A program made the translations under genes and the position numbers. Positions 1-43,842 of a stretch of 64,000 bases of DNA are shown here, one piece after another. The first letter of the stretch is position 1. Every line of letters begins with the position of its first letter. Source of the stretch: Pseudopyrenochaeta lycopersici (lineage: Eukaryota > Ascomycota > Dothideomycetes > Pleosporales > Pseudopyrenochaetaceae); assembly GCA_003313425.1 (NCBI GenBank), contig NHZP01000100.1, positions 1-64,000 on the forward strand, read 5' to 3'. The notes under the pieces are model-generated. The model ran no database searches. It had not been told where the DNA came from and worked only from the letters and a program-made list of their open reading frames with translations.

Positions 1-644
1 CTACTAACGCTCTAAGGCAATGATATGCACTTCTCAGAGCAAGAGCACCGTATTACTGACATGCGGCCCAACTTGTCATTAAGTTCCACGTGTGGAGAAC
101 TACCAGACGCAACGGCCACGCATTTCCCACACAGGAAAAGTCTCCTTGGGGAGATCTCGCCTGTCCCCTTCCTAAGCGCGGTGCGTAGCTGCGCGTAGGC
201 TACGGATTGAGAGCGCTGTCCATAGTCTACGACCGATAGCAAGGCCATTCAAGCCATGCCATACGATGCAGCTCCACGGCAAACCGCTGTCGTGGGTTTC
301 TGCAGCAGAACCGCTCACGGCGTGCGGGTATGCACAATGCGCCGAAGTGAGGCACAGCAGCCACGCTACAGCGCTGACAGAGGGCTACCAGCGTAATTGT
401 GCGTGGATCCTTGCTGCAAAATTATGTTCTGGTAGCTCGCCTTGCGAGCGGTGGCCGGCCCCCGTCCCAGATACTCCCATAACGAACTTTGCCCTGTCGA
501 GAGTATAAGGGACAGAGCTAGTCAAATGTCCAGCAAATGATGCATCATGCACTACGAATCACCACCGAGTCTGAGGGAGCGCATGGGAACAGAGTCGCCC
601 GTTTCCGTATTTCGAGCATCTCCAACACAGCCGTCTTCCACAGC

Positions 645-1542
645 ATGGACGACTCTGTTCGAAGAAAGCGTGAGAATAACCGAATAGCGCAGAGGACATA
701 CAGAAAGAAACGGAGTCAGGGATACGTTGCTGCGAGCAATGGCCGGCCCGGTCGACCCAGGGCCCCAGGAACGTGGCTACAGGGCGGTATGTTGCACATG
801 TTCCCGATGCGTGGAGTGAGGTAGCGGCCTGACATTTCCAAAAGAGCCCCAGGAAGTCCTGGAGCAGCCGCACCAGAGTCTGTGTATGAGTCCTAGCAGT
901 TCGCTAGACGACCTCATCGCAACAGAGGTGTATGCAGCCCAGGCTGATGAGCAGAGCATGGCCCCGGAAGAACACGACGCAGGCTTCGATGCTCTACTCG
1001 ATGCGTTCCAAGCGCCGCCCAGCTTCACGGAGGAGCCCTGCCGCAGCGAAGTCTACGGGCAGACGACGGAGGACCACTGTGTCGAGGAAACCATGGCCGG
1101 CGGACCGAGTACCTACAAAACGTCAGTGGACGAGCACCGCCGCCACCAGGCGGCCCTTTGTCTGCGGAGTCTGTCAGAGGCCAGTCTTCCTCCGCAGGCT
1201 CCGCCCAACTTCGCGACGTGGGTCCGACCGGAAATGGTCACGGGCCGCGATAGCCTTCGCTCGGCCGCAGGTCCAGCAGCAATGTATCGAAGTCCTTGTG
1301 AGCTCCTTGCCGGTACTGGCGCGGCCGCCCAGGACGCTGTGCACTATTTTGGCCTGCCTACGCCGCCGTATACGTGTGGTGAAGCTGCTCCTCGCCTGCT
1401 GCAGGCCGCTCATTGCTGCCCCGGCGCCACCGACATCCGAGTCGACTACCACGAAGGAGCTATGGCATTCAATGGGCCGGCCACGCGAATGGGCGGGTTC
1501 CACATAGCAATGGTGTGCATCTCAGTCATGTACCAGCCGTAA
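645..1542 (+). pseudogene. bZIP-like transcription factor, frame-disrupted (left copy)
   Basis: The ATG at 645 opens a frame with the basic region RRKRENNRIAQRTYRKK. This fits the fungal AP-1/YAP-type bZIP signature (NRxAQRxYRxK), which binds DNA in the nucleus. No leucine heptad follows in that frame, which stops at 824. The rest of the likely protein lies in another frame from about 886 to 1542: acidic and Pro/Ala-rich, starting MSPSSSLDDL, as expected of an activation region. A one-base shift or unrecognised intron between about 710 and 780 is needed to join the parts. This copy also has extra bases at 828 and 843 relative to the other arm. It is a decayed gene or one spoiled by sequencing errors. 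The bZIP call rests on the basic region only. Confidence 0.55.
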
Positions 1543-2457
1543 GCATGTTACTCACCCGTCACGTCCCAGTTTGCATCATCAAGCACATTCTCAAGATATT
1601 AGCACGTCTGAGACGGTCATGTCTATAAGTAACTACGGTGTTGCGGTGGTCGTGATCGCCTTGTCTCGAAGTGAAGCTCGTAGTATCCGTAGGCTTTGCG
1701 ATCAGACATGATTGCGCCGTAATCCACCATCAGCCACAATCTTCACAGTACGGTGCATCTCTTCCTGTTACCCTAATACTTGGCTCTGGGGTGCCCATAC
1801 ACTGTAAAGGCACGCTACGTGATCTGAACATTCCTTTTCATTCGATTCAGCCAAACTCCATGCGCGTAGGATGTTGGGTGCCCATTTGTCCTGTGGCAGA
1901 CTGCTGTTTTCCAACGCTGGGAGCTCTCTTGGCAAGCCCACTTGGCCTATCGCGGCCTGCCTGCTGCCTCCACTGCTTCTTCTAGCAGAATCAGCAGAAC
2001 CAATGTAGGTGTCACCCCGTGAAACAACTCGCCAATGATGCACTCCATATCATCCTCGCGTTCTTGTAGACAGGCGAAGCGGTCCCCTGCCCCGCTTCGC
2101 AAGACCAACCACACTCCACCTAAACGCTAAGGAGCAGCAAGTGCGTGCTTATCCAATATCTCTTTCTTGAAGATAATTTTCTTCAATTATTGATTGATAG
2201 TATCGTGGGAGAATCCAGTGGATGCGCAGTTAAATTTCCAGCGATATGTGCCAGTCATTTATTGGAACTTGCTGTCACCAGAGCTGAGCTGCCTCGCGCC
2301 GCGGTCGTAGTTTATGACCGCCCCATCGGATCACGCCTGTGACGTGAAGGTTTTCTATATCAACTCGATACTCATTTTGTTTTTGAAGAAATTTTAGGCA
2401 CTTTCTCACATTATCAGTCGTCTTGTTGTCTTCCTACAATATCTCGTCTGGGTCACG

Positions 2458-3382
2458 ATGACGCTACAGACATCACCCGCACCTAATGTACTTGGTACCA
2501 TTGCAGCAGTATGCTGGTGCATTAATTTGCTGCCACAGATCTATCGGAATTATCGAAAAAAAAACACAGAAGGGCTGCCTCCCTCATCGCTGATGCTTTG
2601 GGCATCTTCTGGTGTTCCTTCGGGTGTATACGCAATTACCCAACAATTCAGTGTTGCCCTTGTAGTTCAACCTCATTGCTTTACTTTCTTGTGCGGAATC
2701 TCTTGGGCACAATATTTAGTGTATGGGCGGTCGGTTTCTCTCAGTTCCATTCACCGGTATCGATTGCCGTACGCGCTGACACCGTGACAGAAGATACAGT
2801 AAACTTAAAGCCATGGTGTTATTAGTGACTGTCGCATTACTCTTTACCGCAGTCGAGATTGGGCTCCTTATCGCCGTTCAACGTGCACGCAAACTTCTTT
2901 GGCCTATTGGGGCGATTGCCTGCGGCCTTGACTTGCTCGGTTTCGTACCCATTCCGTTTGAGCTCATAAAACGCCGTGGCCGCGTTATAGGCATCGATTT
3001 TTTGTTCCTTGGAATTGATTGCTGTGGGTTCCTTTTTTCACTTTTAGCACTTGCTACTCAGCGCAAATTCGACATGCTTTTTGGAATCACATCCGCGCTT
3101 TGGTAAGTCAAGATCATCTGAGAGTTCACTGGGCTAATTTTGTACAGCTGCGCTATTGAGATGGGCGTGCAGATGTCCCATCTCATATGGCTGTTCCGTA
3201 CTCGGAACATTCGAAAGCGTGCGAAAGAAGCTGGAAGGACTTTCGATGATTATGATGATGGTGTTCAGTGGCAGGCTAAAGGGATTGACTTACAGAAGTT
3301 ATTGCTTAACGTCTTGTGGGTCAAAGCAGTAATGACAATTGATAGCGAGGTAGAAGAACACAGAGCCAAGAACACAGTGTAG
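2458..3382 (+). CDS. PQ-loop repeat membrane protein (left copy)
   Basis: Three exons, 2458-2720, 2791-3102 and 3148-3382, with introns of 70 bp (GTATGG..ACAG) and 45 bp (GTAAGT..ACAG), give a 269-aa protein. The first PQ-loop is INLLPQIYRNYRKKNTEGLP, preceded by the conserved NVLGTIAAVCWC helix. The second half has GFVPIPFELIKRRGRVIGID, then SHLIWLFRTR near the C terminus, the usual layout of fungal PQ-loop proteins. About seven hydrophobic segments are visible. The family (cystinosin, YPQ, SWEET-like) sits mostly in vacuolar/lysosomal or other membranes and exports amino acids or related solutes; the substrate here is unknown. The reading frame is intact in both arms. Confidence 0.85.
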
Positions 3383-3529
3383 TGTAGCAGAAATACGAAA
3401 TACGACCACTAACTTTCGAACCTTTGAATAGCCGAAGTAGGCAACATAGTCATCGGTGATGTAGCTGAAAGACGAATATTTTGAGATGATATCCTTAGCA
3501 CCTACCTGACGTAGGACTATTACTGCCAC

Positions 3530-3709
3530 ATGTTGCCGATCCAGGCATCCGATCTGCTTTTTAACGAGGAAACGATTGCAGTCATAGATCTCGCTTCGGG
3601 GAACGACGGGTTCCCCATAATCATTGAAGCAGTAACGAAGAAGGAAGAGGTATTAAGGAAAATGCACAAGGGCCCCTGCTCCTCACCATCCTGCAGGGTC
3701 CCGGAATAA
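3530..3709 (+). other. Small 59-codon ORF, unassigned (mirror at 39888-40067, minus)
   Basis: The ORF opens MLPIQASDLLFNEETIAVID and is hydrophilic in its second half, with a well-mixed composition that looks protein-like. It lies between the PQ-loop gene and the DUF829-like remnant. I recognise no family and see no convincing splice sites. It could be a gene fragment or chance. Confidence 0.25.
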
Positions 3710-3724
3710 CCTGATCCTGCTGCC

Positions 3725-4394
3725 ATGTCTTTCCAAAACGCTAATCAGCGAACCATCACACCGTCAACATCAACAGCTGCAGCTCTACAACGCCCTGGCT
3801 GGGACTATGTTGTCGATGAAATCGCTCAAGGCCATAAACTCGCTCCATAAGCGTAGCAAAAACATTGGGACCGTTGGTCGATCCAGGAGCGCTAGCGGCG
3901 CTTGACGATCAGAACATCCTTCCAGAAGGTTTGCGCTCACTACGCCATCAATATGGGAATACACTCCGCCTGCTACGTATGTCCTTACATACTCGCCCTC
4001 TCTGATAATGCTATGCACATGGACTGAAGCTCAAAATAGGGTACATCGAAGTACACAGCAATCTATCAGAAGCTCTTCCTATTGGCACGGATTATGGTTA
4101 TTACTACTACTGTTAAAGATCTATGCTTCCGCAACTCACAACGGAAGCAAGAATGTCTGAAGCCTGCTGTTGAACATATCAGCGACGACGAAGGCATCTT
4201 AATGCATGTTTTCTCTGAGGGGGCAAGCAATAAAGCATGCGAATTGGCGGACGCATATTACAAGCTTACCAGCAAGCGGCTACCTACGCTACCTTCGCCT
4301 CTGCAACGCACTCAACAAGTCTCTTCCTTCTTTTCCTGTGTTTCGGCAAACTAGCCTGTTCTTCGGCAGTGCAGTGCTTGGAGCAAGGGTTTGA
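3725..4394 (+). pseudogene. DUF829 (TMEM53/PaxU-like) protein remnant (left copy)
   Basis: Three pieces in different frames match the order of fungal DUF829 proteins. First, an N-terminal piece from ATG 3725 ends at a stop near 3847. Second, a piece reads SIWEYTPPATYVLTYSPSLI then MLCTWTEAQNRVH. Third, a piece contains YQKLF, ARIMVITTTVKDLCFR and the family landmark ILMHVFSEGASNKACELADA. DUF829 proteins are alpha/beta-hydrolase-like; one relative sits in fungal secondary metabolism clusters. At least two frameshifts and a truncated C terminus make this a pseudogene. The same lesions are in the other arm. Confidence 0.6.
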
Positions 4395-5094
4395 AAGAAA
4401 CTTTATTACTAGGTCACGGCAACGCATCTTAGACACTACATCACACTATAGAGACCAACCTAGAGTAAACTTGGTGGTATATTTCCGTTGGCGGAGATAC
4501 ACGACGGGCGTGCTGCAGCTGAGTCGCGCAGCTGAGTTGCGCAGCTGAGGAGAGCGGTTATAGAAGCACTCGGGTTTGCCCTTCGTCGTGCGCCTCTTCA
4601 TTGCTGTCGCTGCGGGCTTCGTCGGAAGTGGTTTGCAGCATATCTGTCGTGGAGGTTCGACAGTTCCATTGGTGCAGTCCACGACAACACATTTCCGAAT
4701 AGGGCTGTTTCAACGGTGGTCTATAGTACACCTCATCTTCAATTAGAAGATTCATGTAACCGCGCATTGGACATGGAAGTAAAGCTATTATGATTAACCG
4801 TTTCAGCCACACATGCCCGATGGTGTAATCGTCGTGCTCGCCATGATCATGCCTTGTAGACACTCCGTCATTGTGCATTGTTGCTGATCGCCATGCCGAT
4901 GGCAGCCGTGAATATGCTCCTCTCAGCTTCTAAGCTGTTCCATCTCCCACAATCCTGTGTGCATTTCTTGATCTGACAACATCTCGGCACGGCGAGGACA
5001 AGCGGTGCTGCGAACAAACTTTTGGCGGGTGATTGTTTAAGCTGGGGAAGAGGAGAGTGCATTTGCTAAGCTCGTCAAAGATACGCATCGATTT
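4395..5094. other. No recognisable gene (mirror 38503-39202)
   Basis: Only overlapping short frames on both strands, none resembling a known family. A small direct duplication (CTGAGTYGCGCAG, repeated around 4520-4547) is the only local structure noted. Confidence 0.5.
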
Positions 5095-5575
5095 ATGATG
5101 TATCATAAAGGAGCGATTGAAAATAGTGCTCTCCAGGCGTATGCATCTGCTCTATTGTTCAGTCGAAGGAAGAGTTTGATCAGCACGAAGAGCCAGATTA
5201 GATCACTGTCATACCGGCTATGGGCGACAGCTGGCGCGTGCCTGCTCGATGACCATGGTAGTGCGGTCATATCCGTCGCCTTTGCGCACGACTCAACCCT
5301 GCTCGCATCAGCGTCGCATGACAATAGAGTACCTTAAATCAGTCTAGTATAACGATGAGGTTGCATCACCCTCTTAATTGTAAAGGGTCTAGGCGCGCTC
5401 TGCGCATCTAAGCATTATCAACTACAGAACTCGAGACGTTTACTGATCGCTAATTTGTAGCAGTTCGAAAGGTGCTTATCTTAATTGCTATCCTAGACTT
5501 TGGCTACAAAATGTGAACCTGTACAGAGTGTGGGACTGTGATTTCAGGAAGCAGCTCATCCCTTAATCAGGGCGG
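5095..5575 (+). pseudogene. NACHT/WD40 (NLR-like) remnant (left copy)
   Basis: The frame 5095-5337 contains LQAYASALLFSRRKSLIS. This matches the linker between NACHT and WD domains of fungal HET-E-like NLRs (typically LQxYxSALxFSPxxS). It continues into SAVISVAFAHDSTLLASASH, a clear WD40 blade start. After the stop, VWDCDFRKQL near 5527-5560 looks like a blade end. Everything upstream (effector, NACHT) and further blades are missing. Family members act in non-self recognition and cell death in fungi. This is only a fragment of roughly 80-100 codons and cannot function as one. Confidence 0.6.
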
Positions 5576-6190
5576 TATTAAGGGGAGCAGCGCGACCTAC
5601 ATGAAGTTTCCAGTACCATTACGTGAAGCAATTGTTGAAAACTTGTGCATCACCATGCATGGGGGTGCCCACATGAGAAGGCCGGCAGGTTGGCAGGACA
5701 CGATGAATACCACAGGAGCTGCGCCTATGCTTTCTTCGCTTTCACGACTACGATTCGGACGGGGTATGTTATCGCCCACGGGATGCAATCTCCTGCAGCA
5801 GCTATTGCCAAAGGAAAGCGTATTTTTTTGTCAACGCGCTCACATTTTTGTCTACACAGGATGAATATGTGTCACGGAACGTGGTCCACAGCAGTAACCG
5901 GGGTCCGCTTCACACCAGGGGCCTCTAAAGTCTCGCATATCGTTCTTACCTATCAGGACTTTGACAGAGCGCATAGAAAGCATAACTCCTATCTCGTCTC
6001 GATTTTCTGCTTCAATAACCTCAAATCAGTGCGTCATCTTGTCATGTATGTTATTTTCGTGGTGATGCCGGTTGTTCCCGCTACAGGTGGATGCAGGTTA
6101 TGTTACATGTAACTTTAATTACTATCTATCGAAAGTACTTTGTATCGATGCACCAGCTGAACTGATAGAGAAAGTTGCTTAAGTTTACCT
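5576..6190. other. No recognisable gene (mirror 37407-38021)
   Basis: Contains open frames of up to 155 codons (5645-6112, plus) that resemble nothing I know. They overlap equally long frames on the other frames and strand. I treat them as chance. Confidence 0.4.
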
Positions 6191-7107
6191 TTAAAAGTTC
6201 ATAGCTACTTTAAGAAATTGCTGTGCGTTAAATACCTCTCCATTATAAAACGGACGCACCTCTTCTAATAAGGTCGCAGTCGTGGAGCTTTCATTTTGGC
6301 ACATTTGAACTACTTTAACTAGCTTCTTTCCGTAATGTGGTGGGATTGGCCGAGGACGTTCGGTGTATAGCTGCCTTGCGCATAGTTCATAGATTGTGCG
6401 ACCTAGTGCCCGTATATCGGTCTGTAATTCGTGAGGACGACTAACTTCGTATGTAAAGCCGCCTAGTTTTACTACAAAGTTATCGCAAAGAAAGACTATT
6501 AAATAAGTATAGTATACCGTTATAAACTTTAATAACAACTTACTATTTTCAGGTCTAACATCCCCGTGTACAATCCTAGCACTTTTAGGAACGTCTCTTG
6601 TCTTAATGTCGTCGCTACTACGTGGCGGACTTTCCCCATAATGACACACGTACAAAGCATTTAGCAGCTGCCACAATATTCTCCAGATTAGGCCCTCCAC
6701 TAAATCCGTCTCTAGATTATCTATTAACGTTTTTAGGGTTCCTTTGTTACAGTATTCCATGTAGATATGCGTTTGTTGAGAAAGCGCAACGTACTCGAAA
6801 CCTATACACTGAATAATGTTTGGATGCCGAGCTAGTCCTTTTAGGAGTTCTAGTCTACTATTTAAGTTTTGATTGTGATCCGCCTGCGTGGTGTCCTGAA
6901 CCTCCTCACGATAGAATATCTAATAAAGTTAGAAACTGTAGAACAGACCAAGAAAAGATACGCACCTTATCAGTTAACCTTTCTTTTACCTTTCGAATGG
7001 TTTTAGAGCTGTTAGAATCTAAACATTGTTAGTAAATAATATTCTTGAAGAATAGATCTAATTTCTAATTTACCAAGCAGTTTTAGCACCTCGTAATAGT
7101 TATCCAT
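6191..7107 (-). CDS. Nek/NIMA-like pseudokinase (left copy)
   Basis: Minus-strand mirror of the gene modelled on the right arm: four exons, 255 aa. It is closely related to the NIMA-like kinase in the spacer but lacks catalytic features. The glycine loop is lost, the VAIK lysine is Glu (YREEV), HRD is HGD with KPEN as RPEN, DFG is GGF, and the activation segment with the GTPxFMxPE motif is deleted. The frame and three introns are nevertheless intact, so it could be expressed as a catalytically dead binding protein. Otherwise it is a young pseudogene. The region is AT-rich compared with neighbouring genes. Confidence 0.7.
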
Positions 7108-7876
7108 ATGGTAAGAGAACTGTGGTTGCACATGTCCACTAACAAAGCTACATCTTATACTTGTATTGCAAAAAACTTGACAAATACGAAACGAACTTAA
7201 ACGACTAGTGATCTACATCTACTAAGCTGTTGGGTTGACTCTCGATCTGAGGCTAACCTTCTAGTAATACAACACGGCTGTTAATGATAGCGCATGCACA
7301 ATCGCTACTTAGGTAGGTTCTGTACAGTATGCTATTCTTTTACACAGCTACCAAAACATCACGATCTGTGCTGAACAGGCCACCCGAGAAAATACTTTGA
7401 TGTTTAATTGAACCTTAGCGGGCATGAGTCAGCCAATGCCCTGTTTAATTGTCTAGCTAGTTAATAAATTCAAAAGGCGCAGTAGCGATAAAACAGATCA
7501 TAATTCGTGCGCATATAGAGTAGACGTAGAGATAGCATCTGAATAGAAATCACTCCTACGATTCGCCCTAGATCACCGTGATTCGCTTTGATTTCGTAGT
7601 TGCAAAACTAATGCTGATGTCGGGCTTCGGTGCCATAATTGCGCCGTCAAGGCCGCTGGCAGAAGAGGACTCGCTCAGCTCAGTGAACGCGGGTAGGGAG
7701 GCGAAATTAATGGGGTTGCCGTCAGGTCGCACACGTATAATGTTGGAATCGAAAAAAGCTTGTGTTGACGCAAAGAGCATATGTTCTTGAGGCCTCGTTG
7801 CTAGAGAATTCGCTAGTAGAGGTGGCCAGGGCAAGGAGAGGATGCGGGTCGAAGCGGGTGGCTTGAGCGAGGCGAG
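7108..7876. other. AT-rich intergenic stretch, no gene seen (mirror 35721-36489)
   Basis: Low-GC sequence upstream of the pseudokinase. The longer open frames at 7568-7834 overlap on both strands and resemble no family I can name. The pseudokinase promoter should lie just above 7107 on this strand, but I see no distinct element. Confidence 0.4.
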
Positions 7877-8236
7877 TCAGGACTTGTCTCTGCAGTTGGC
7901 GCTGAGGGCGTGGCACCCAGGTGAGAACCTGGAGAGCTTCTCCGCCACGTCATCATAGAGGTGTGTCCAGTACTCAGGCTTAGAGCCAGGTTTCCCCGCC
8001 AGCTCGCGGCACTCGTCCCGGTACAGCGCTGCGAGCTGACTGACCTTGTCTGCTCATTCTTTTGTCTGGGCGTTACTCCTGTCATTCTCCTCAATGGTAG
8101 AAGTTTCACCGCGTGTGTGGGCGGTGGCGGCGGCTAGAAGAGCGGGTGGTGGGCAATCGCGAATATCGCGTAGACCTCTAGGGGGGAGCGCTTCAATATC
8201 GGGCGGAAGAGTATGGACGACATCCACGAGGCTATT
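7877..8236 (-). pseudogene. Possible retrotransposon gag relic (mirror 35361-35720, plus)
   Basis: Reading the right-arm plus strand, one frame with a single internal stop contains PRGLRDIRDCPPPALLAAA, then VSQLAALYRDECRELAGK. The second resembles the 'LAxLYxDExKYxG' region of copia-type gag proteins common in Pleosporales. No protease, integrase or reverse transcriptase is seen nearby and no LTRs were found. The match is from memory of the family and is weak. Confidence 0.3.
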
Positions 8237-9087
8237 AGCGGCGCAATGTTGCCATATTATGAGCTTCTTTTAGTTGGGCTGCAGGAGCGCGAACGACTTA
8301 ATGTCACGCAGTCTCGAGCTGTCACGAGCTGTCTGACATAGTGTCCGGTACCAGAGCATCGTTAACGGGCAGGTAATTGCAGAATTCGAAGCGGGGGTAC
8401 GGCTCGCAGGGACGTTGCCCATCCAGGTAACTTAGTACTGTACATATCTATCTGCCATGATTGTGCATAAGTTTGATCAAGATACCGTTACAATGTGGAG
8501 ATAGCCGTTGCCAAGCGCTAGAGACGGAAGTGGTTAGCATAGTGTCGCACTGGATGTGCTAAAACGATGAGAGTTGAGGTAATGATGATAAACAGCAGCG
8601 TTGTATTGATTGATGTTGTGTCTGAAGTGTGGGGTACTCCAACCCGCAGATTTACATGCAGCATCACAGCTGGATTACTCATACAGATGTTTCCTGGCCT
8701 GCGACACAAAGCCCTGCCAAGTGTTGAATGAGCATTACCAGCTAACTTGAAAAGTCCATTGATTGCAACATCCCGGATTCGATGGCAAAGACGTTTTGGC
8801 TTTGATTACTGTTGTAACGAAAGTCTACACTTATTCACATCAACAACTAAGCAGGCTGCTCTGGTAGTAATGAAAAGCGCTAATGATAATACTAGGTCAC
8901 GATACGCAGCATCTAACTACGAACTACACCAGCAGCTCCTGACACCTATTGTCGCAAGCCAGGCATGGCCTCGGAATCCAATATGGATGCAACAAGGATG
9001 AACTGCATTAGTAATCTTGTCGTGGGGTTCCTGTAGATAAGCTAGGCCAGAGTGCTCGACACAATAGACACACAACACTGCATTTTA
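8237..9087. other. No recognisable gene (mirror 34510-35360)
   Basis: Short frames only. A repeated CTGTCACGAGCTGTC-type sequence at 8316-8336 is the one local feature. Confidence 0.4.
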
Positions 9088-9377
9088 CAGTCACTAGCGA
9101 AACCGGCTTCCCCTCGAACACAGCTGCAACACAGTTTTACGCGGGTCAGCAGACAGGGGGCCTGACCCTACTTTCCACATCTAGCGAAGCGCCAAACGTC
9201 AGCATCACGTGCGTAGCGTTTTCATAGAAGTTCTCACCCAGAAGAAATGAGCACATGATGCTTATGATTAGCCCTTCGCCTCATAGGGAAAGGTGGGGAC
9301 TTGGCCCCTTGACCGCTGACCCGCGTAAACCTGTGTTGCAGCTGTGTTCGAGGGGAAGCCGGTTTCGCTAGTGACTG
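9088..9377. mobile_element. 290-bp foldback MITE with TA target duplication (mirror 34220-34509)
   Basis: Begins CAGTCACTAGCGAAACCGGC and ends with its reverse complement. The outer 63 bp of both ends pair with one mismatch, and pairing continues imperfectly toward the centre. TA flanks both ends (9086-9087 and 9378-9379), as for Tc1/mariner/pogo-type elements. No coding capacity. Related but diverged ends occur at 25306-25542 and near 16143-16185 in the spacer. Confidence 0.85.
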
Positions 9378-9692
9378 TAGTAGAGACCCCAGCGATGGGC
9401 AGGCACCTCTACGTGGTGCTGGGGATTAGTACTCAAGTAGTGGCGGCTGCTTGAGGAAGCTAAGATCTGCCTAGAAGAGATGGAGAGGTGGAGCGCGGAA
9501 AGGTGAAGAAATGGGAAGGGTGGAAAGGTGGAAGGATGGCACAGCGATGCCGATAACATAGGAATACCGCAGGCCCCAACGAGGCTCAAAGTTCGTGAAT
9601 GAAATGGAACAACCCAATGTAACTACAATAGTTATAACCACAGTAGTGGTAGCCTGCATATCCTACGGGAGAGGTCGGGGTAAATGAATTAT

Positions 9693-9723
<31 letters not shown>

Positions 9724-9769
9724 AAGAAGAAGAAGAAGAAGAAGAAGAAGAAGAAGACTGTAGTAGAGA
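9373..9769 (+). mobile_element. SINE-like insertion with AAG tail and 14-bp flanking duplication (mirror 33828-34224)
   Basis: The 14-mer GACTGTAGTAGAGA occurs at 9373-9386 and again at 9756-9769. Between the copies lie about 307 bp of non-coding sequence followed by 21 AAG units running straight into the second copy. Body, simple-repeat tail and long target duplication are the hallmarks of LINE-mobilised short retroposons. The 5' end can form hairpins (CCCCAGC..GCTGGGG; CTCAAG..CTTGAG). I could not identify convincing pol III A and B boxes. The first duplication copy overlaps the end of the foldback MITE, so this insertion is younger. Confidence 0.55.
9694..9756. repeat. (AAG)21 microsatellite (mirror 33841-33903)
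   Basis: Pure AAG repeat of about 63 bp, at the same length in both arms. In the other reading direction it creates a spurious poly-leucine frame. Microsatellites mutate fast, so equal copy number in both arms argues for a very recent duplication, ongoing gene conversion or an assembly copy. Confidence 0.95.
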
Positions 9770-9869
9770 GACAAAATTCTGCAAGCTACTTAAGCGTTTC
9801 ATATAGCAAAGTAATCGGCGGAGGACGAGGTGTTGATGATTAAGTCGTCTCTTTGAATCATCATAAGCT

Positions 9870-10829: not shown

Positions 10830-11055
10830 AGCAGAGGTTCTAGACGAACTTAAACATAACAGTACTGTATTGTGGCGGTTACTGGAGCTCAATTGAAGCC
10901 GCGCTTGCAGAAATAGAATCGCTGAAGCCAGGAGAAGCTCCCTCGTACACGAGACTTGTTTTGATAGAGCGTGTATATGGCGACCGCTTTGCCGTACTGA
11001 AGAGGGCGGCCTAAGTAGCCAGGGTGTGAGTGTCAAAGCATTTGCAGGGGTTGGT

Positions 11056-11249
11056 CTGTTACAAGTTCCAGGCACTGCATGACCCTATTGTTGCTGTGTT
11101 GGGACATGTACTGTAATATAGGAATTAAGAATTCTCTAACATCTGTGACGTCGCTTCTTATTACATCGTAAATGTTGAATCGCATAATGCCCACAGGTTC
11201 AAGGCAGGACCCGATGATGCCATGCAGTGTCTGGAACTTATTACAGCAC
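11056..11249. mobile_element. Small MITE-like inverted repeat (mirror 32348-32541)
   Basis: CTGTTACAAGTTCCAGGCAC at 11056 is followed about 165 bp later by its near reverse complement (GTGTCTGGAACTTATTACAG, to about 11246). Arms are about 26 bp with two or three mismatches; no coding capacity. A target duplication could not be defined. Confidence 0.45.
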
Positions 11250-13817: not shown

Positions 13818-13834
13818 AGTAAGGACACTACTTG

Positions 13835-29761: not shown

Positions 29762-29779
29762 GCAAGTAGTGTCCTTACT

Positions 29780-33727: not shown

Positions 33728-33873
33728 AGCTTATGATGATTCAAAGAGACGACTTAATCATCAACACCTCGTCCTCCGCCGATTACTTTGCTATATGAAA
33801 CGCTTAAGTAGCTTGCAGAATTTTGTCTCTCTACTACAGTCTTCTTCTTCTTCTTCTTCTTCTTCTTCTTCTT

Positions 33874-33904
<31 letters not shown>

Positions 33905-36489
33905 ATAATTCATTTACCCCGACCTCTCCCGTAGGATATGCAGGCTACCACTACTGTGGTTATAACTATTGTAGTTACATTGGGTTGTTCCATTTCATTC
34001 ACGAACTTTGAGCCTCGTTGGGGCCTGCGGTATTCCTATGTTATCGGCATCGCTGTGCCATCCTTCCACCTTTCCACCCTTCCCATTTCTTCACCTTTCC
34101 GCGCTCCACCTCTCCATCTCTTCTAGGCAGATCTTAGCTTCCTCAAGCAGCCGCCACTACTTGAGTACTAATCCCCAGCACCACGTAGAGGTGCCTGCCC
34201 ATCGCTGGGGTCTCTACTACAGTCACTAGCGAAACCGGCTTCCCCTCGAACACAGCTGCAACACAGGTTTACGCGGGTCAGCGGTCAAGGGGCCAAGTCC
34301 CCACCTTTCCCTATGAGGCGAAGGGCTAATCATAAGCATCATGTGCTCATTTCTTCTGGGTGAGAACTTCTATGAAAACGCTACGCACGTGATGCTGACG
34401 TTTGGCGCTTCGCTAGATGTGGAAAGTAGGGTCAGGCCCCCTGTCTGCTGACCCGCGTAAAACTGTGTTGCAGCTGTGTTCGAGGGGAAGCCGGTTTCGC
34501 TAGTGACTGTAAAATGCAGTGTTGTGTGTCTATTGTGTCGAGCACTCTGGCCTAGCTTATCTACAGGAACCCCACGACAAGATTACTAATGCAGTTCATC
34601 CTTGTTGCATCCATATTGGATTCCGAGGCCATGCCTGGCTTGCGACAATAGGTGTCAGGAGCTGCTGGTGTAGTTCGTAGTTAGATGCTGCGTATCGTGA
34701 CCTAGTATTATCATTAGCGCTTTTCATTACTACCAGAGCAGCCTGCTTAGTTGTTGATGTGAATAAGTGTAGACTTTCGTTACAACAGTAATCAAAGCCA
34801 AAACGTCTTTGCCATCGAATCCGGGATGTTGCAATCAATGGACTTTTCAAGTTAGCTGGTAATGCTCATTCAACACTTGGCAGGGCTTTGTGTCGCAGGC
34901 CAGGAAACATCTGTATGAGTAATCCAGCTGTGATGCTGCATGTAAATCTGCGGGTTGGAGTACCCCACACTTCAGACACAACATCAATCAATACAACGCT
35001 GCTGTTTATCATCATTACCTCAACTCTCATCGTTTTAGCACATCCAGTGCGACACTATGCTAACCACTTCCGTCTCTAGCGCTTGGCAACGGCTATCTCC
35101 ACATTGTAACGGTATCTTGATCAAACTTATGCACAATCATGGCAGATAGATATGTACAGTACTAAGTTACCTGGATGGGCAACGTCCCTGCGAGCCGTAC
35201 CCCCGCTTCGAATTCTGCAATTACCTGCCCGTTAACGATGCTCTGGTACCGGACACTATGTCAGACAGCTCGTGACAGCTCGAGACTGCGTGACATTAAG
35301 TCGTTCGCGCTCCTGCAGCCCAACTAAAAGAAGCTCATAATATGGCAACATTGCGCCGCTAATAGCCTCGTGGATGTCGTCCATACTCTTCCGCCCGATA
35401 TTGAAGCGCTCCCCCCTAGAGGTCTACGCGATATTCGCGATTGCCCACCACCCGCTCTTCTAGCCGCCGCCACCGCCCACACACGCGGTGAAACTTCTAC
35501 CATTGAGGAGAATGACAGGAGTAACGCCCAGACAAAAGAATGAGCAGACAAGGTCAGTCAGCTCGCAGCGCTGTACCGGGACGAGTGCCGCGAGCTGGCG
35601 GGGAAACCTGGCTCTAAGCCTGAGTACTGGACACACCTCTATGATGACGTGGCGGAGAAGCTCTCCAGGTTCTCACCTGGGTGCCACGCCCTCAGCGCCA
35701 ACTGCAGAGACAAGTCCTGACTCGCCTCGCTCAAGCCACCCGCTTCGACCCGCATCCTCTCCTTGCCCTGGCCACCTCTACTAGCGAATTCTCTAGCAAC
35801 GAGGCCTCAAGAACATATGCTCTTTGCGTCAACACAAGCTTTTTTCGATTCCAACATTATACGTGTGCGACCTGACGGCAACCCCATTAATTTCGCCTCC
35901 CTACCCGCGTTCACTGAGCTGAGCGAGTCCTCTTCTGCCAGCGGCCTTGACGGCGCAATTATGGCACCGAAGCCCGACATCAGCATTAGTTTTGCAACTA
36001 CGAAATCAAAGCGAATCACGGTGATCTAGGGCGAATCGTAGGAGTGATTTCTATTCAGATGCTATCTCTACGTCTACTCTATATGCGCACGAATTATGAT
36101 CTGTTTTATCGCTACTGCGCCTTTTGAATTTATTAACTAGCTAGACAATTAAACAGGGCATTGGCTGACTCATGCCCGCTAAGGTTCAATTAAACATCAA
36201 AGTATTTTCTCGGGTGGCCTGTTCAGCACAGATCGTGATGTTTTGGTAGCTGTGTAAAAGAATAGCATACTGTACAGAACCTACCTAAGTAGCGATTGTG
36301 CATGCGCTATCATTAACAGCCGTGTTGTATTACTAGAAGGTTAGCCTCAGATCGAGAGTCAACCCAACAGCTTAGTAGATGTAGATCACTAGTCGTTTAA
36401 GTTCGTTTCGTATTTGTCAAGTTTTTTGCAATACAAGTATAAGATGTAGCTTTGTTAGTGGACATGTGCAACCACAGTTCTCTTACCAT

Positions 36490-37406
36490 ATGGATAACTA
36501 TTACGAGGTGCTAAAACTGCTTGGTAAATTAGAAATTAGATCTATTCTTCAAGAATATTATTTACTAACAATGTTTAGATTCTAACAGCTCTAAAACCAT
36601 TCGAAAGGTAAAAGAAAGGTTAACTGATAAGGTGCGTATCTTTTCTTGGTCTGTTCTACAGTTTCTAACTTTATTAGATATTCTATCGTGAGGAGGTTCA
36701 GGACACCACGCAGGCGGATCACAATCAAAACTTAAATAGTAGACTAGAACTCCTAAAAGGACTAGCTCGGCATCCAAACATTATTCAGTGTATAGGTTTC
36801 GAGTACGTTGCGCTTTCTCAACAAACGCATATCTACATGGAATACTGTAACAAAGGAACCCTAAAAACGTTAATAGATAATCTAGAGACGGATTTAGTGG
36901 AGGGCCTAATCTGGAGAATATTGTGGCAGCTGCTAAATGCTTTGTACGTGTGTCATTATGGGGAAAGTCCGCCACGTAGTAGCGACGACATTAAGACAAG
37001 AGACGTTCCTAAAAGTGCTAGGATTGTACACGGGGATGTTAGACCTGAAAATAGTAAGTTGTTATTAAAGTTTATAACGGTATACTATACTTATTTAATA
37101 GTCTTTCTTTGCGATAACTTTGTAGTAAAACTAGGCGGCTTTACATACGAAGTTAGTCGTCCTCACGAATTACAGACCGATATACGGGCACTAGGTCGCA
37201 CAATCTATGAACTATGCGCAAGGCAGCTATACACCGAACGTCCTCGGCCAATCCCACCACATTACGGAAAGAAGCTAGTTAAAGTAGTTCAAATGTGCCA
37301 AAATGAAAGCTCCACGACTGCGACCTTATTAGAAGAGGTGCGTCCGTTTTATAATGGAGAGGTATTTAACGCACAGCAATTTCTTAAAGTAGCTATGAAC
37401 TTTTAA
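36490..37406 (+). CDS. Nek/NIMA-like pseudokinase (right copy)
   Basis: Exons 36490-36523, 36579-36631, 36678-37053 and 37102-37406 with introns of 55, 46 and 48 bp; 255 aa. Exon 2 is 53 nt, exactly as in the spacer kinase gene, and all three introns sit at the same positions and phases, including inside PEN|IFL. Motifs: RHPNIIQC (alpha-C/beta-4), YMEYCNKGTL hinge, LYVCHYGESPP, HGDVRPEN (Asp about residue 149), KLGGFT in place of DFG (about 165-169), then DIRALGRTIYELCA in the alpha-F region. The ATP-site lysine equivalent is Glu34. Roughly 25-30 residues of activation loop are missing. No coiled coil follows. I infer a pseudokinase that may regulate or titrate partners of its active paralogue; this is untested. 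Confidence 0.7.
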
Positions 37407-38021
37407 AGGTAAACTTAAGCAACTTTCTCTATCAGTTCAGCTGGTGCATCGATACAAAGTACTTTCGATAGATAGTAATTAAAGTTACATGTAACATAAC
37501 CTGCATCCACCTGTAGCGGGAACAACCGGCATCACCACGAAAATAACATACATGACAAGATGACGCACTGATTTGAGGTTATTGAAGCAGAAAATCGAGA
37601 CGAGATAGGAGTTATGCTTTCTATGCGCTCTGTCAAAGTCCTGATAGGTAAGAACGATATGCGAGACTTTAGAGGCCCCTGGTGTGAAGCGGACCCCGGT
37701 TACTGCTGTGGACCACGTTCCGTGACACATATTCATCCTGTGTAGACAAAAATGTGAGCGCGTTGACAAAAAAATACGCTTTCCTTTGGCAATAGCTGCT
37801 GCAGGAGATTGCATCCCGTGGGCGATAACATACCCCGTCCGAATCGTAGTCGTGAAAGCGAAGAAAGCATAGGCGCAGCTCCTGTGGTATTCATCGTGTC
37901 CTGCCAACCTGCCGGCCTTCTCATGTGGGCACCCCCATGCATGGTGATGCACAAGTTTTCAACAATTGCTTCACGTAATGGTACTGGAAACTTCATGTAG
38001 GTCGCGCTGCTCCCCTTAATA

Positions 38022-38502
38022 CCGCCCTGATTAAGGGATGAGCTGCTTCCTGAAATCACAGTCCCACACTCTGTACAGGTTCACATTTTGTAGCCAAAGT
38101 CTAGGATAGCAATTAAGATAAGCACCTTTCGAACTGCTACAAATTAGCGATCAGTAAACGTCTCGAGTTCTGTAGTTGATAATGCTTAGATGCGCAGAGC
38201 GCGCCTAGACCCTTTACAATTAAGAGGGTGATGCAACCTCATCGTTATACTAGACTGATTTAAGGTACTCTATTGTCATGCGACGCTGATGCGAGCAGGG
38301 TTGAGTCGTGCGCAAAGGCGACGGATATGACCGCACTACCATGGTCATCGAGCAGGCACGCGCCAGCTGTCGCCCATAGCCGGTATGACAGTGATCTAAT
38401 CTGGCTCTTCGTGCTGATCAAACTCTTCCTTCGACTGAACAATAGAGCAGATGCATACGCCTGGAGAGCACTATTTTCAATCGCTCCTTTATGATACATC
38501 AT
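38022..38502 (-). pseudogene. NACHT/WD40 (NLR-like) remnant (right copy)
   Basis: Exact mirror of the left-arm fragment, with the same WD40 start motif and the same stop after about 80 codons. Confidence 0.6.
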
Positions 38503-39202
38503 AAATCGATGCGTATCTTTGACGAGCTTAGCAAATGCACTCTCCTCTTCCCCAGCTTAAACAATCACCCGCCAAAAGTTTGTTCGCAGCACCGCTTGTC
38601 CTCGCCGTGCCGAGATGTTGTCAGATCAAGAAATGCACACAGGATTGTGGGAGATGGAACAGCTTAGAAGCTGAGAGGAGCATATTCACGGCTGCCATCG
38701 GCATGGCGATCAGCAACAATGCACAATGACGGAGTGTCTACAAGGCATGATCATGGCGAGCACGACGATTACACCATCGGGCATGTGTGGCTGAAACGGT
38801 TAATCATAATAGCTTTACTTCCATGTCCAATGCGCGGTTACATGAATCTTCTAATTGAAGATGAGGTGTACTATAGACCACCGTTGAAACAGCCCTATTC
38901 GGAAATGTGTTGTCGTGGACTGCACCAATGGAACTGTCGAACCTCCACGACAGATATGCTGCAAACCACTTCCGACGAAGCCCGCAGCGACAGCAATGAA
39001 GAGGCGCACGACGAAGGGCAAACCCGAGTGCTTCTATAACCGCTCTCCTCAGCTGCGCAACTCAGCTGCGCGACTCAGCTGCAGCACGCCCGTCGTGTAT
39101 CTCCGCCAACGGAAATATACCACCAAGTTTACTCTAGGTTGGTCTCTATAGTGTGATGTAGTGTCTAAGATGCGTTGCCGTGACCTAGTAATAAAGTTTC
39201 TT

Positions 39203-39872
39203 TCAAACCCTTGCTCCAAGCACTGCACTGCCGAAGAACAGGCTAGTTTGCCGAAACACAGGAAAAGAAGGAAGAGACTTGTTGAGTGCGTTGCAGAGGC
39301 GAAGGTAGCGTAGGTAGCCGCTTGCTGGTAAGCTTGTAATATGCGTCCGCCAATTCGCATGCTTTATTGCTTGCCCCCTCAGAGAAAACATGCATTAAGA
39401 TGCCTTCGTCGTCGCTGATATGTTCAACAGCAGGCTTCAGACATTCTTGCTTCCGTTGTGAGTTGCGGAAGCATAGATCTTTAACAGTAGTAGTAATAAC
39501 CATAATCCGTGCCAATAGGAAGAGCTTCTGATAGATTGCTGTGTACTTCGATGTACCCTATTTTGAGCTTCAGTCCATGTGCATAGCATTATCAGAGAGG
39601 GCGAGTATGTAAGGACATACGTAGCAGGCGGAGTGTATTCCCATATTGATGGCGTAGTGAGCGCAAACCTTCTGGAAGGATGTTCTGATCGTCAAGCGCC
39701 GCTAGCGCTCCTGGATCGACCAACGGTCCCAATGTTTTTGCTACGCTTATGGAGCGAGTTTATGGCCTTGAGCGATTTCATCGACAACATAGTCCCAGCC
39801 AGGGCGTTGTAGAGCTGCAGCTGTTGATGTTGACGGTGTGATGGTTCGCTGATTAGCGTTTTGGAAAGACAT
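39203..39872 (-). pseudogene. DUF829-like protein remnant (right copy)
   Basis: Mirror of the left-arm remnant with identical breaks. The best-preserved frame (39243-39515) contains the HVFSEGASNKACELADAYYK motif. Shared lesions show that decay came before the inverted duplication, unless the duplication is an assembly artefact. Confidence 0.6.
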
Positions 39873-40214
39873 GGCAGCAGGATCAGGTTATTCCGGGACC
39901 CTGCAGGATGGTGAGGAGCAGGGGCCCTTGTGCATTTTCCTTAATACCTCTTCCTTCTTCGTTACTGCTTCAATGATTATGGGGAACCCGTCGTTCCCCG
40001 AAGCGAGATCTATGACTGCAATCGTTTCCTCGTTAAAAAGCAGATCGGATGCCTGGATCGGCAACATGTGGCAGTAATAGTCCTACGTCAGGTAGGTGCT
40101 AAGGATATCATCTCAAAATATTCGTCTTTCAGCTACATCACCGATGACTATGTTGCCTACTTCGGCTATTCAAAGGTTCGAAAGTTAGTGGTCGTATTTC
40201 GTATTTCTGCTACA

Positions 40215-41139
40215 CTACACTGTGTTCTTGGCTCTGTGTTCTTCTACCTCGCTATCAATTGTCATTACTGCTTTGACCCACAAGACGTTAAGCAATAACT
40301 TCTGTAAGTCAATCCCTTTAGCCTGCCACTGAACACCATCATCATAATCATCGAAAGTCCTTCCAGCTTCTTTCGCACGCTTTCGAATGTTCCGAGTACG
40401 GAACAGCCATATGAGATGGGACATCTGCACGCCCATCTCAATAGCGCAGCTGTACAAAATTAGCCCAGTGAACTCTCAGATGATCTTGACTTACCAAAGC
40501 GCGGATGTGATTCCAAAAAGCATGTCGAATTTGCGCTGAGTAGCAAGTGCTAAAAGTGAAAAAAGGAACCCACAGCAATCAATTCCAAGGAACAAAAAAT
40601 CGATGCCTATAACGCGGCCACGGCGTTTTATGAGCTCAAACGGAATGGGTACGAAACCGAGCAAGTCAAGGCCGCAGGCAATCGCCCCAATAGGCCAAAG
40701 AAGTTTGCGTGCACGTTGAACGGCGATAAGGAGCCCAATCTCGACTGCGGTAAAGAGTAATGCGACAGTCACTAATAACACCATGGCTTTAAGTTTACTG
40801 TATCTTCTGTCACGGTGTCAGCGCGTACGGCAATCGATACCGGTGAATGGAACTGAGAGAAACCGACCGCCCATACACTAAATATTGTGCCCAAGAGATT
40901 CCGCACAAGAAAGTAAAGCAATGAGGTTGAACTACAAGGGCAACACTGAATTGTTGGGTAATTGCGTATACACCCGAAGGAACACCAGAAGATGCCCAAA
41001 GCATCAGCGATGAGGGAGGCAGCCCTTCTGTGTTTTTTTTTCGATAATTCCGATAGATCTGTGGCAGCAAATTAATGCACCAGCATACTGCTGCAATGGT
41101 ACCAAGTACATTAGGTGCGGGTGATGTCTGTAGCGTCAT
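40215..41139 (-). CDS. PQ-loop repeat membrane protein (right copy)
   Basis: Identical to the left-arm gene by conceptual translation, on the opposite strand. Exons are 41139-40877, 40806-40495 and 40449-40215, with the same two short introns. It encodes the same 269-aa PQ-loop protein, so the window has two intact copies of this putative vacuolar solute transporter. Any dosage effect is speculation. It is the only clearly recognisable transporter in the arms without a broken frame. Confidence 0.83.
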
Positions 41140-42052
41140 CGTGACCCAGACGAGATATTGTAGGAAGACAACAAGACGACTGATAATGTGAGAAAGTGCC
41201 TAAAATTTCTTCAAAAACAAAATGAGTATCGAGTTGATATAGAAAACCTTCACGTCACAGGCGTGATCCGATGGGGCGGTCATAAACTACGACCGCGGCG
41301 CGAGGCAGCTCAGCTCTGGTGACAGCAAGTTCCAATAAATGACTGGCACATATCGCTGGAAATTTAACTGCGCATCCACTGGATTCTCCCACGATACTAT
41401 CAATCAATAATTGAAGAAAATTATCTTCAAGAAAGAGATATTGGATAAGCACGCACTTGCTGCTCCTTAGCGTTTAGGTGGAGTGTGGTTGGTCTTGCGA
41501 AGCGGGGCAGGGACCGCTTCGCCTGTCTACAAGAACGCGAGGATGATATGGAGTGCATCATTGGCGAGTTGTTTCACGGGGTGACACCTACATTGGTTCT
41601 GCTGATTCTGCTAGAAGAAGCAGTGGAGGCAGCAGGCAGGCCGCGATAGGCCAAGTGGGCTTGCCAAGAGAGCTCCCAGCGTTGGAAAACAGCAGTCTGC
41701 ACAGGACAAATGGGCACCCAACATCCTACGCGCATGGAGTTTGGCTGAATCGAATGAAAAGGAATGTTCAGATCACGTAGCGTGCCTTTACAGTGTATGG
41801 GCACCCCAGAGCCAAGTATTAGGGTAACAGGAAGAGATGCACCGTACTGTGAAGATTGTGGCTGATGGTGGATTACGGCGCAATCATGTCTGATCGCAAA
41901 GCCTACGGATACTACGAGCTTCACTTCGAGACAAGGCGATCACGACCACCGCAACACCGTAGTTACTTATAGACATGACCGTCTCAGACGTGCTAATATC
42001 TTGAGAATGTGCTTGATGATGCAAACTGGGACGTGACGGGTGAGTAACATGC

Positions 42053-42948
42053 TTACGGCTGGTACATGACTGAGATGCACACCATTGCTATGTGGAACCC
42101 GCCCATTCGCGTGGCCGGCCCATTGAATGCCATAGCTCCTTCGTGGTAGTCGACTCGGATGTCGGTGGCGCCGGGGCAGCAATGAGCGGCCTGCAGCAGG
42201 CGAGGAGCAGCTTCACCACACGTATACGGCGGCGTAGGCAGGCCAAAATAGTGCACAGCGTCCTGGGCGGCCGCGCCAGTACCGGCAAGGAGCTCACAAG
42301 GACTTCGATACATTGCTGCTGGACCTGCGGCCGAGCGAAGGCTATCGCGGCCCGTGACCATTTCCGGTCGGACCCACGTCGCGAAGTTGGGCGGAGCCTG
42401 CGGAGGAAGACTGGCCTCTGACAGACTCCGCAGACAAAGGGCCGCCTGGTGGCGGCGGTGCTCGTCCACTGACGTTTTGTAGGTACTCGGTCCGCCGGCC
42501 ATGGTTTCCTCGACACAGTGGTCCTCCGTCGTCTGCCCGTAGACTTCGCTGCGGCAGGGCTCCTCCGTGAAGCTGGGCGGCGCTTGGAACGCATCGAGTA
42601 GAGCATCGAAGCCTGCGTCGTGTTCTTCCGGGGCCATGCTCTGCTCATCAGCCTGGGCTGCATACACCTCTGTTGCGATGAGGTCGTCTAGCGAACTGCT
42701 AGGACTCATACACAGACTCTGGTGCGGCTGCTCCAGGACTTCCTGGGGCTCTTTGGAAATGTCAGGCGCTACCTCACTCCACGCATCGGGAACATGTGCA
42801 ACATACCGCCCTGTAGCCACGTTCCTGGGGCCCTGGGTCGACCGGGCCGGCCATTGCTCGCAGCAACGTATCCCTGACTCCGTTTCTTTCTGTATGTCCT
42901 CTGCGCTATTCGGTTATTCTCACGCTTTCTTCGAACAGAGTCGTCCAT
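42053..42948 (-). pseudogene. bZIP-like transcription factor, frame-disrupted (right copy)
   Basis: Mirror of the left-arm gene. The N-terminal frame with the basic region ends at 42769. The C-terminal frame is open from before 42820 down to 42053, giving a continuous stretch of more than 250 codons (downstream of the basic region it reads ATGRYVAHVPDAWSEV). Here the two frames overlap, so a single-base shift between them would restore one protein. The lack of a recognisable zipper remains. Because this copy lacks the two extra bases of the left arm, the left arm probably has the errors. Confidence 0.55.
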
Positions 42949-43842
42949 GCTGTGGAAGACGGCTGTGTTGGAGATGCTCGAAATACGGAAACCGGGCGAC
43001 TCTGTTCCCATGCGCTCCCTCAGACTCGGTGGTGATTCGTAGTGCATGATGCATCATTGCTGGACATTTGACTAGCTCTGTCCCTTATACTCTCGACAGG
43101 GCAAAGTTCGTTATGGGAGTATCTGGGACCGGGGGCCGGCCACCGCTCGCAAGGCGAGCTACCAGAACATAATTTTGCAGCAAGGATCCACGCACAATTA
43201 CGCTGGTAGCCCTCTGTCAGCGCTGTAGCGTGGCTGCTGTGCCTCACTTCGGCGCATTGTGCATACCCGGCACGCCGTGAGCGGTTCTGCTGCAGAAACC
43301 CACGACAGCGGTTTGCCGTGGAGCTGCATCGTATGGCATGGCTTGAATGGCCTTGCTATCGGTCGTAGACTATGGACAGCGCTCTCAATCCGTAGCCTAC
43401 GCGCAGCTACGCACCGCGCTTAGGAAGGGGACAGGCGAGATCTCCCCAAGGAGACTTTTCCTGTGTGGGAAATGCGTGGCCGTTGCGTCTGGTAGTTCTC
43501 CACACGTGGAACTTAATGACAAGTTGGGCCGCATGTCAGTAATACGGTGCTCTTGCTCTGAGAAGTGCATATCATTGCCTTAGAGCGTTAGTAGATTATC
43601 ATCGCATGAGCCTCAAAGAATGTTGTAGCATTAGCTCGTTCTTGTGTATCGGGGATACTAAACTATTAGTGCTGTAACATCATACCTGGGCGACGTAAGG
43701 GATAAGTTCTGCTCGGGCTCATCCATACGTACAAACACTCATAACAAAACATGCTCTACAGAGATTTAGAATACAGATAGGACCTCAATCCTTCCTTCTA
43801 AGGTATAGACCAACTAGCCAGTGTCTAGTAACGCCTCGTATC

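What the first reader, a model, noticed from the sequence alone, without database searches (positions are those of the whole stretch)
1..43596. Giant 13.8-kb inverted repeat with a 15.9-kb gene-bearing spacer
Left and right arms are reverse complements over about 13.8 kb with no difference detected in the inner 11.7 kb. Each arm contains several genes plus the same nested transposons. Fungal genomes rarely keep such long near-identical palindromic arms because they promote recombination and trigger RIP. It could be a real recent inverted segmental duplication, a structural polymorphism, or a misassembly at a contig end, since the left arm reaches the first base.
Basis: seen in the sequence. 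Interest (0 to 1): 0.8.

Follow-up and report, generated by a model that had tools for sequence, protein, structure and literature searches.

The report
Recent inverted duplication beside transposon end
A fungal contig carries a 13.8-kb stretch twice, back to back around a 15.9-kb middle; the copies are effectively identical, and the new joint falls exactly on the end of a tiny transposon remnant, which suggests a very recent rearrangement, though an assembly error cannot be excluded without the raw reads.

Summary
The inverted repeat is in the sequence: 1-13835 and 29762-43594 match with no substitutions and eight 1-base homopolymer indels, all within 2.1 kb of the contig start. At six of six testable indels the contig-end copy is the odd one against a 94% paralogue, so these look like consensus errors. 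Four tested pieces of arms, junctions and flank occur on no other contig.

The left junction looks like the new one. The arm is fused, without microhomology, to the terminal base of a 49-bp hAT remnant that lacks a matching target-site copy there; beyond it lies the truncated end of a second transposon.

Best reading: a very recent inverted duplication around a spacer, broken at a hAT end, of unknown extent beyond base 1. An assembly chimera stays possible: another contig (C51) ends in a palindrome whose unfolded version is on C53. Here, though, the spacer is long for a fold-back read, and the 11.75 kb next to the junction is error-free. Raw-read mapping would decide.

The parts
1..13835 (+). 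left arm of the inverted repeat; begins at base 1 of the contig, so its outer limit is unknown
29762..43594 (-). right arm, reverse complement of the left arm
13836..29761 (.). spacer (15,926 bp) with HlyIII-like, hAT-like, DPBB-like (below Pfam's cut-off), protein kinase and EST1-domain reading frames; its two ends were found nowhere else, its middle was not tested with a working control
325..2084 (.). stretch holding all eight 1-bp homopolymer differences between the arms; 6 of 6 testable ones are odd in this contig-end copy
13835..13836 (.). left arm/spacer junction J1, argued to be the new breakpoint; no microhomology with J2
13836..13884 (.). 49-bp hAT remnant: two identical 22-bp terminal inverted repeats back to back around 5 bp; the only perfect hairpin in the window at stem 16 or more and loop 10 or less
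13885..13941 (+). terminal fragment of a second transposon (TE2) whose five fetched copies continue about 1.5 kb further left
29761..29762 (.). right spacer/arm junction J2, argued to be the ancestral arrangement
14003..14331 (+). left member of an old, diverged inverted repeat just inside the spacer (about 70% with gaps)
28738..29027 (-). right member of the same old inverted repeat, at the 3' end of the EST1-domain frame
6191..6919 (-). protein-kinase-like frame in the left arm (mirror 36678-37406)
9870..11084 (-). weakly kinase-like 404-aa frame in the left arm (mirror 32513-33727); E 0.0002, below Pfam's cut-off
9694..9757 (.). (AAG) microsatellite of 21.3 units, same length in both arms (mirror 33840-33903)
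26634..28772 (+). spacer frame with EST1 DNA/RNA-binding domain; 80% identical to a Pyrenochaeta protein

Best explanation
A real and very recent inverted duplication around a spacer, present in the sequenced culture. The chromosome (running right to left from contig C36 through C100) was interrupted at the outer end of a small hAT remnant at 13836, and the spacer end was joined to an inverted copy of the region that begins at 29762, probably from the sister chromatid or by renewed copying of the same chromatid. What lay left of the remnant was replaced. The copied arm reaches at least 13.8 kb and may continue beyond base 1. Shown: identity of the arms, absence of the tested pieces from other contigs, position of J1 at the hAT terminus, truncation of the neighbouring transposon. 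Inferred: that the junction exists in the cells, that a hAT-type cut or a replication fault at the hairpin caused it, and that J1 rather than J2 is new.
For: Zero substitutions in 13.8 kb and equal 21.3-unit microsatellites mean a very recent copy. J1 coincides to the base with a hAT terminus; that terminus has 62 hits genome-wide at up to 2 mismatches, the two at J1 included, against 0 for the reversed control. Both paired-end copies of about 3 kb that I checked have 8-bp target duplications, whereas at J1 the two 8-bp flanks differ. Right of the remnant lies the truncated end of TE2; all five fetched copies of TE2 run on leftwards. J1 has no microhomology. The 11.75 kb of left arm next to J1 has no difference from the right arm, while the 9.4-kb terminal palindrome of C51 carries indels throughout. 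Four pieces (13000-15000, 43400-46000 with the outer 195 bp of the arm, 3000-5600, 28700-30700) returned C100 itself and no other long match, all candidates scored, so I see no third copy that could have misled an assembler; that an assembler needs a read to place a unique stretch twice is general knowledge. The isolate shows recent transposition: C36 and C126 are the same stretch with and without a 5.26-kb LTR element. Human inverted duplications show the same arm-spacer-arm layout, with sequenced spacers of 766-70,466 bp (PMC3907307, passages).
Against: No raw reads or coverage could be examined. The left arm ends at the contig's first base, as a chimera would. C51 in the same assembly ends in a palindrome that C53 contradicts. 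With overlaps between contigs kept elsewhere in this assembly, a left neighbour overlapping the arm might have been expected, and none was found with the pieces tested. In the human set 20 of 21 sequenced spacers are under 15 kb, so 15.9 kb is long. Error-free sequence in duplicated stretches is not proof of unique read support: C36 and C126 share 14.7 kb with one indel. The coincidence with a hAT terminus was noticed after the fact. The two searches with the whole arm and whole spacer did not return C100 itself, so they failed their own control and show nothing about uniqueness; the middle of the spacer (15001-28699) stays untested.
Confidence: 0.6

Rival explanations
1. Assembly or library artefact: one or a few chimeric molecules joined the left end of the spacer to an inverted copy of the right arm, and the assembler extended the contig to the end of such a read.
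For: The left arm ends at contig base 1. Terminal homopolymer indels are all in the contig-end copy where testable (6 of 6). C51 shows a contig-terminal palindrome with an unfolded version on C53. Fold-back artefacts are documented in long reads (PMC12870357, Results and Discussion read).
Against: [quoted passage not shown] here the loop is 15.9 kb. The paper's definition (within 200 bp) would itself leave out long loops, so this is not decisive. It found no systematic fold-backs in three PacBio sets, none of them the RS II chemistry used here. A random ligation would rarely land inverted within 16 kb of itself and to the base on a transposon end. The arm next to J1 is error-free for 11.75 kb, unlike C51. 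None of 12 contig starts, nor of 6 contig ends that returned their own place, showed a distant inverted copy in its own contig, in lists where 40 of 799 and 40 of 272 candidates were scored.
Confidence: 0.27
2. An ordinary finite inverted segmental duplication, perhaps older, with its own unrelated left flank and arms kept identical by gene conversion between them.
For: An old diverged inverted repeat (about 70%) lies just inside both junctions, 167 bp and 734 bp from them, roughly collinear with the arms, as expected if an older palindrome had been homogenised outside that point.
Against: Conversion would have to cover all 13.8 kb without leaving one substitution. No similarity was found between the stretches that separate the old repeat from the arms. 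The old repeat may be no more than a fragment of the EST1-like family, which has relatives on C26, C51, C53 and C54. No left-flank sequence is in hand.
Confidence: 0.13

Closest known systems
Human inverted duplications with a disomic spacer (fold-back model; PMC3907307, abstract and passages)
   Same: Inverted identical arms around a spacer; 15.9 kb lies within the reported 766-70,466 bp; inverted homology of about 300 bp occurs at some junctions there.
   Different: There 13 of 21 sequenced junctions show 2-8 bp microhomology and 3 lie in homology of about 300 bp; here J1 has none and the 330-bp diverged inverted repeat lies 167 and 734 bp away. 20 of 21 spacers there are under 15 kb. Copy number and the outer end are unknown here.
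hAT (Ac/Ds) alternative transposition in maize: sister-chromatid and reversed-ends transposition (PMC3744419, PMC4270019, passages)
   Same: Breakpoint at the exact terminus of a hAT element, one side without the matching 8-bp target duplication; PMC3744419 states that sister-chromatid transposition can give flanking inverted duplications and deletions.
   Different: Only a 49-bp remnant is seen, no reciprocal product and no second donor element have been found, and the host is a fungus.
Fold-back inversions in yeast (PMC7467729, PMC10622511, passages)
   Same: Inverted duplications arising at hairpin-forming sequences after a break; large-loop hairpins can have loops of thousands of bases. 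The C51 end, folded at a 76-bp inverted repeat (94.7%), resembles this closely.
   Different: For C100 the hairpin at J1 is not the fold point, since sequence beyond it is not a mirror of the near side.
Palindrome and sister-chromatid fusion on accessory chromosomes of Zymoseptoria tritici (PMC3681731, passages)
   Same: A large palindrome flanked by transposon remnants (chromosome 14), and sister-chromatid fusion in two offspring (chromosome 17).
   Different: That palindrome lies between 500 and 550 kb of its chromosome and is flanked by Copia remnants; the passages read describe no hAT terminus at a joint.

Membership tests
Inverted duplication with single-copy spacer (fold-back type) | Two inverted, near-identical arms around a spacer | tested here: met
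Inverted duplication with single-copy spacer (fold-back type) | Spacer present once in the genome | tested here: inconclusive
   spacer ends 13836-15000 and 28700-29761 found only in C100; the whole-spacer search failed its control
Inverted duplication with single-copy spacer (fold-back type) | Inverted homology or microhomology exactly at the spacer/inversion joint | tested here: not met
   0 bp microhomology at J1; diverged 330-bp inverted repeat lies 167/734 bp away. Not filed as fold-back proper for this reason.
Inverted duplication with single-copy spacer (fold-back type) | Arms at two copies, spacer at one, sequence beyond the break lost | not testable with these tools
   no read depth available; truncation of TE2 at J1 is only consistent
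hAT alternative transposition product | Joint at the exact terminus of a hAT-type element | tested here: met
hAT alternative transposition product | Family makes 8-bp target-site duplications, and they are unmatched at the rearranged end | tested here: met
   8-bp duplications in 2 of 2 paired-end copies examined; at J1 the flanks CTACTTGC and GGCGGCAG differ
hAT alternative transposition product | Reciprocal product sharing the target-site copy, or a second nearby donor end | tested here: inconclusive
   only the two remnant ends match in the window; a reciprocal product would need other isolates or reads
Long-read fold-back artefact | No or short loop between the inverted copies | tested here: not met
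   loop 15,926 bp against about 2 kb in the longest example I saw
Long-read fold-back artefact | Inverted arm ends at the contig end and carries raw-read-like errors throughout | tested here: inconclusive
   arm ends at base 1, but differences lie only in the outer 2.1 kb
Palindrome maintained by gene conversion | Arms more alike than neighbouring sequence of the same age | not testable with these tools
   no related genome was at hand as DNA

The most novel reading that the evidence does not exclude
A hAT transposon terminus was transposed into the sister chromatid in inverted orientation (sister-chromatid-type alternative transposition), giving a large inverted duplication whose left arm runs on beyond the contig as a mirror of C100 and possibly C36. 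This would be a natural fungal case of a process worked out in maize.
Probability: 0.18. Interest if true: 0.6.

Novelty: new member of a known kind. Interest (0 to 1): 0.36.

Why it matters
If real, it is a rearrangement caught with no detectable divergence between the copies and a base-precise joint at a transposon end, in a fungus described as asexual and rich in transposons; it would show one way such genomes make gene duplicates without meiosis. If an artefact, it is a caution about contig ends in older PacBio assemblies, of which C51 may be a second case here.

Tried and rejected
RIP as a reason to doubt the repeat: rejected as weak. Telomere at the left contig end: no TTAGGG array of three or more units in C100; such arrays do occur at other contig ends (first places listed only). 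Fold-back centred on the J1 hairpin: rejected, since the sequence to its right is not the mirror of that to its left. Simple copying primed from the old inverted repeat: it should have placed a copy of 29028-29761 beside the left repeat, which is not there. A gene spanning J1 or J2 to tell old from new: the frames listed across the junctions showed no evident gene, judged by eye only. Protein search with the 600-aa frame at 45716-47518: 0 hits at E <= 0.001 among 7998 candidates scored.

Third copy of arm or spacer: the first searches, with whole arm and whole spacer, did not list C100 itself, so their silence is no evidence; what they did show is a 94% paralogue of 63-1612 on C36 and C126 and the EST1-like relatives. 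Shorter pieces returned C100 and no other long match.

A simple read-length model gives, if the joint were in half or all molecules, 5-fold depth out to roughly 7-20 kb from J1 (or no fall within the 20 kb modelled), and under 2 kb if it were in a tenth; it rests on assumed read-length distributions, and on a 5-fold polishing threshold that is recalled, so it is not used as a main argument.

Weak points of my survey of contig ends: 20 contig starts were fetched and the 12 with GC above 0.42 searched; all 12 returned their own place, but only 40 of 799 candidates were scored. C35, C36, C56, C70, C80 and C85 returned their own place; C47 and C101 returned nothing; 40 of 272 candidates were scored. 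C70 showed only a small inverted match within about 250 bp of its own end.
Full report
Observation. The two arms are reverse complements over 13.8 kb with no substitutions and eight 1-base indels. All eight are homopolymer-length differences in the outer 2.1 kb of the left arm, at the start of contig C100; the inner 11,751 bp are identical letter for letter. Against a 94% paralogue on C126, the left copy is the odd one at 6 of 6 testable positions; the other two (1895, 2084) lie outside the paralogue. I read them as consensus errors at a contig end. A 21-unit microsatellite has the same length in both arms.

Where it lies. C100 is 72,714 bp in an assembly of 62,731,430 bp and 188 contigs. The spacer's EST1-domain protein is closest, among the 120 hits listed, to a Pyrenochaeta protein (80%), with a Cucurbitaria protein at 78%. 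A published PacBio assembly of Pyrenochaeta lycopersici ER1518 has 188 unitigs and 62,731,747 bp, 317 bp more (PMC6034849; outline, passages and sections 5, 6, 12 and 16 seen). [quoted passage not shown] The terms palindrom, inverted and segmental occur 0 times in its main text.

Uniqueness. Four pieces were searched against the assembly with all candidates scored: 13000-15000, 43400-46000, which includes the outer 195 bp of the arm, 3000-5600 and 28700-30700. Each returned C100 (both arms where expected) and otherwise only short or diverged matches, such as a 133-bp match at 95% on C36 and on C126 at the outer end of the arm, part of the known paralogue. Two earlier searches with the whole arm and the whole spacer did not list C100 itself and are not used as evidence of absence. 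The middle of the spacer is therefore untested.

Neighbours. The right end of C100 overlaps the start of C36, and C126 in reverse joins both. C126 equals C36 over the 14.7 kb of C126 compared, apart from one indel and one 5.26-kb LTR element with identical repeats of about 178 bp and a 5-bp target duplication, present in C36 only. The culture therefore seems to hold near-identical structural versions of one region, with recent transposition.

A second palindrome. C51 ends in a palindrome: 327011-336431 against 336653-346060, 99.63%, 221-bp loop, on a contig of 346,061 bp. It has 4 mismatches and 28 gap events, 20 of them bases missing in the contig-end arm, spread along the whole arm. The first 161 bp of C53 repeat C51 from 318593; C53:13485-18141 matches C51 through the loop, and C53:18224-20000 does not match the last 19 kb of C51. 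C53 between 162 and 13484 was not compared. In C53 the loop is flanked by a 76-bp inverted repeat of 94.7%. C51 is thus a fold-back, in the cells or in the library, with the unfolded version also present. It was met by chance, through its EST1-like gene. Of 12 contig starts and 6 contig ends that returned their own place, none showed a distant inverted copy in its own contig, in capped lists (limits under Tried and rejected).

The junctions. At J1 the arm meets, to the base, a 49-bp remnant made of two identical 22-bp hAT-type termini around 5 bp. The terminus occurs 62 times in the genome at up to 2 mismatches, the two here included, with none for the reversed control pattern. Two paired-end copies of about 3 kb were checked and both have 8-bp target duplications. 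At J1 the left and right 8-bp flanks differ. That the terminus is of hAT type rests on these 8-bp duplications and on recalled features of hAT ends. Right of the remnant lie some 57 bp of the end of another transposon, TE2; all five fetched copies, of the 22 or so listed, continue about 1.5 kb leftwards to the limit of the fetched flank. The simplest account is that the remnant's left flank was replaced by the arm, so J1 is new and J2 old. The bases just inside the two joints differ, so there is no microhomology.

An old inverted repeat (14003-14331 and 28738-29027, 70% with gaps) lies just inside the spacer. It might have brought the two ends together, or be a leftover of an older duplication. 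It is not at the joints, so a plain fold-back at it is not supported.

Real or artefact. For artefact: the arm ends at the contig end, and C51 exists. Against: the spacer is far longer than the loops reported for fold-back reads, although the paper's definition favours short ones; the 11.75 kb next to J1 is free of differences, unlike C51; no other copy was found that could have misled the assembler; and J1 falls on a transposon terminus. Against my reading of the error pattern: C36 and C126 are almost error-free although duplicated, so lack of errors is no proof of unique reads. I put a real junction, with or without continuation beyond base 1, at about 0.7 in all (0.6 for the best explanation, 0.13 for an ordinary finite duplication), and an artefact at 0.27.

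Mechanism. A cut at the hAT end followed by joining to the sister chromatid, as in maize alternative transposition (PMC3744419, PMC4270019, passages), fits the terminus, the unmatched target copy and the lack of microhomology. A replication fault at the perfect hairpin fits nearly as well. The data cannot separate them. In the listings of two searches I saw no title on hAT alternative transposition in fungi; apart from the two maize papers, of which I saw passages, those papers were not opened, so this is no claim that none exists.

Verdict. Observation confirmed; interpretation partly supported; a new member of a known kind of rearrangement, with a base-precise transposon terminus at the joint as its most interesting trait.

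Noticed in passing
G000 contig C51:327011-346060 (L020, L021, L028, L029) and C53:13485-18141 (L019): Contig-terminal palindrome with a 221-bp loop at a 76-bp inverted repeat; C53 holds the unfolded version. Fold-back inversion in some nuclei or a library artefact.
   Followed up: partly
G000 C36:7591-12851 (L066) against C126 (L064): An LTR element with identical repeats of about 178 bp and a 5-bp target duplication is present in C36 and absent in the otherwise almost identical C126: insertion polymorphism within one isolate.
   Followed up: yes
C100:70000-72714 (L025) and C36:2912-5623: C100 and C36 overlap and can be ordered side by side; C126 supports the join.
   Followed up: yes
G000: starts of C53, C70 and C80 (L037, L041, L043): These contig starts recur at 100% inside C51, C63 and C151 respectively, in the same orientation: overlapping or redundant contigs occur repeatedly in this assembly.
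   Followed up: partly
window 13836-13884: hAT remnant of two bare termini with a base (T) that differs from the base (A) in the other copies listed, in both ends.
   Followed up: partly
window 26634-28772 and C26, C51, C53, C54 (L017-L021): Small family of EST1-domain genes, 76-78% alike in DNA to the window's copy, with two places on C51 (its two palindrome arms).
   Followed up: no
window 8542-8706 and 13885-13941: Short repeats with many genomic copies at about 90% identity (miniature elements and transposon ends).
   Followed up: no
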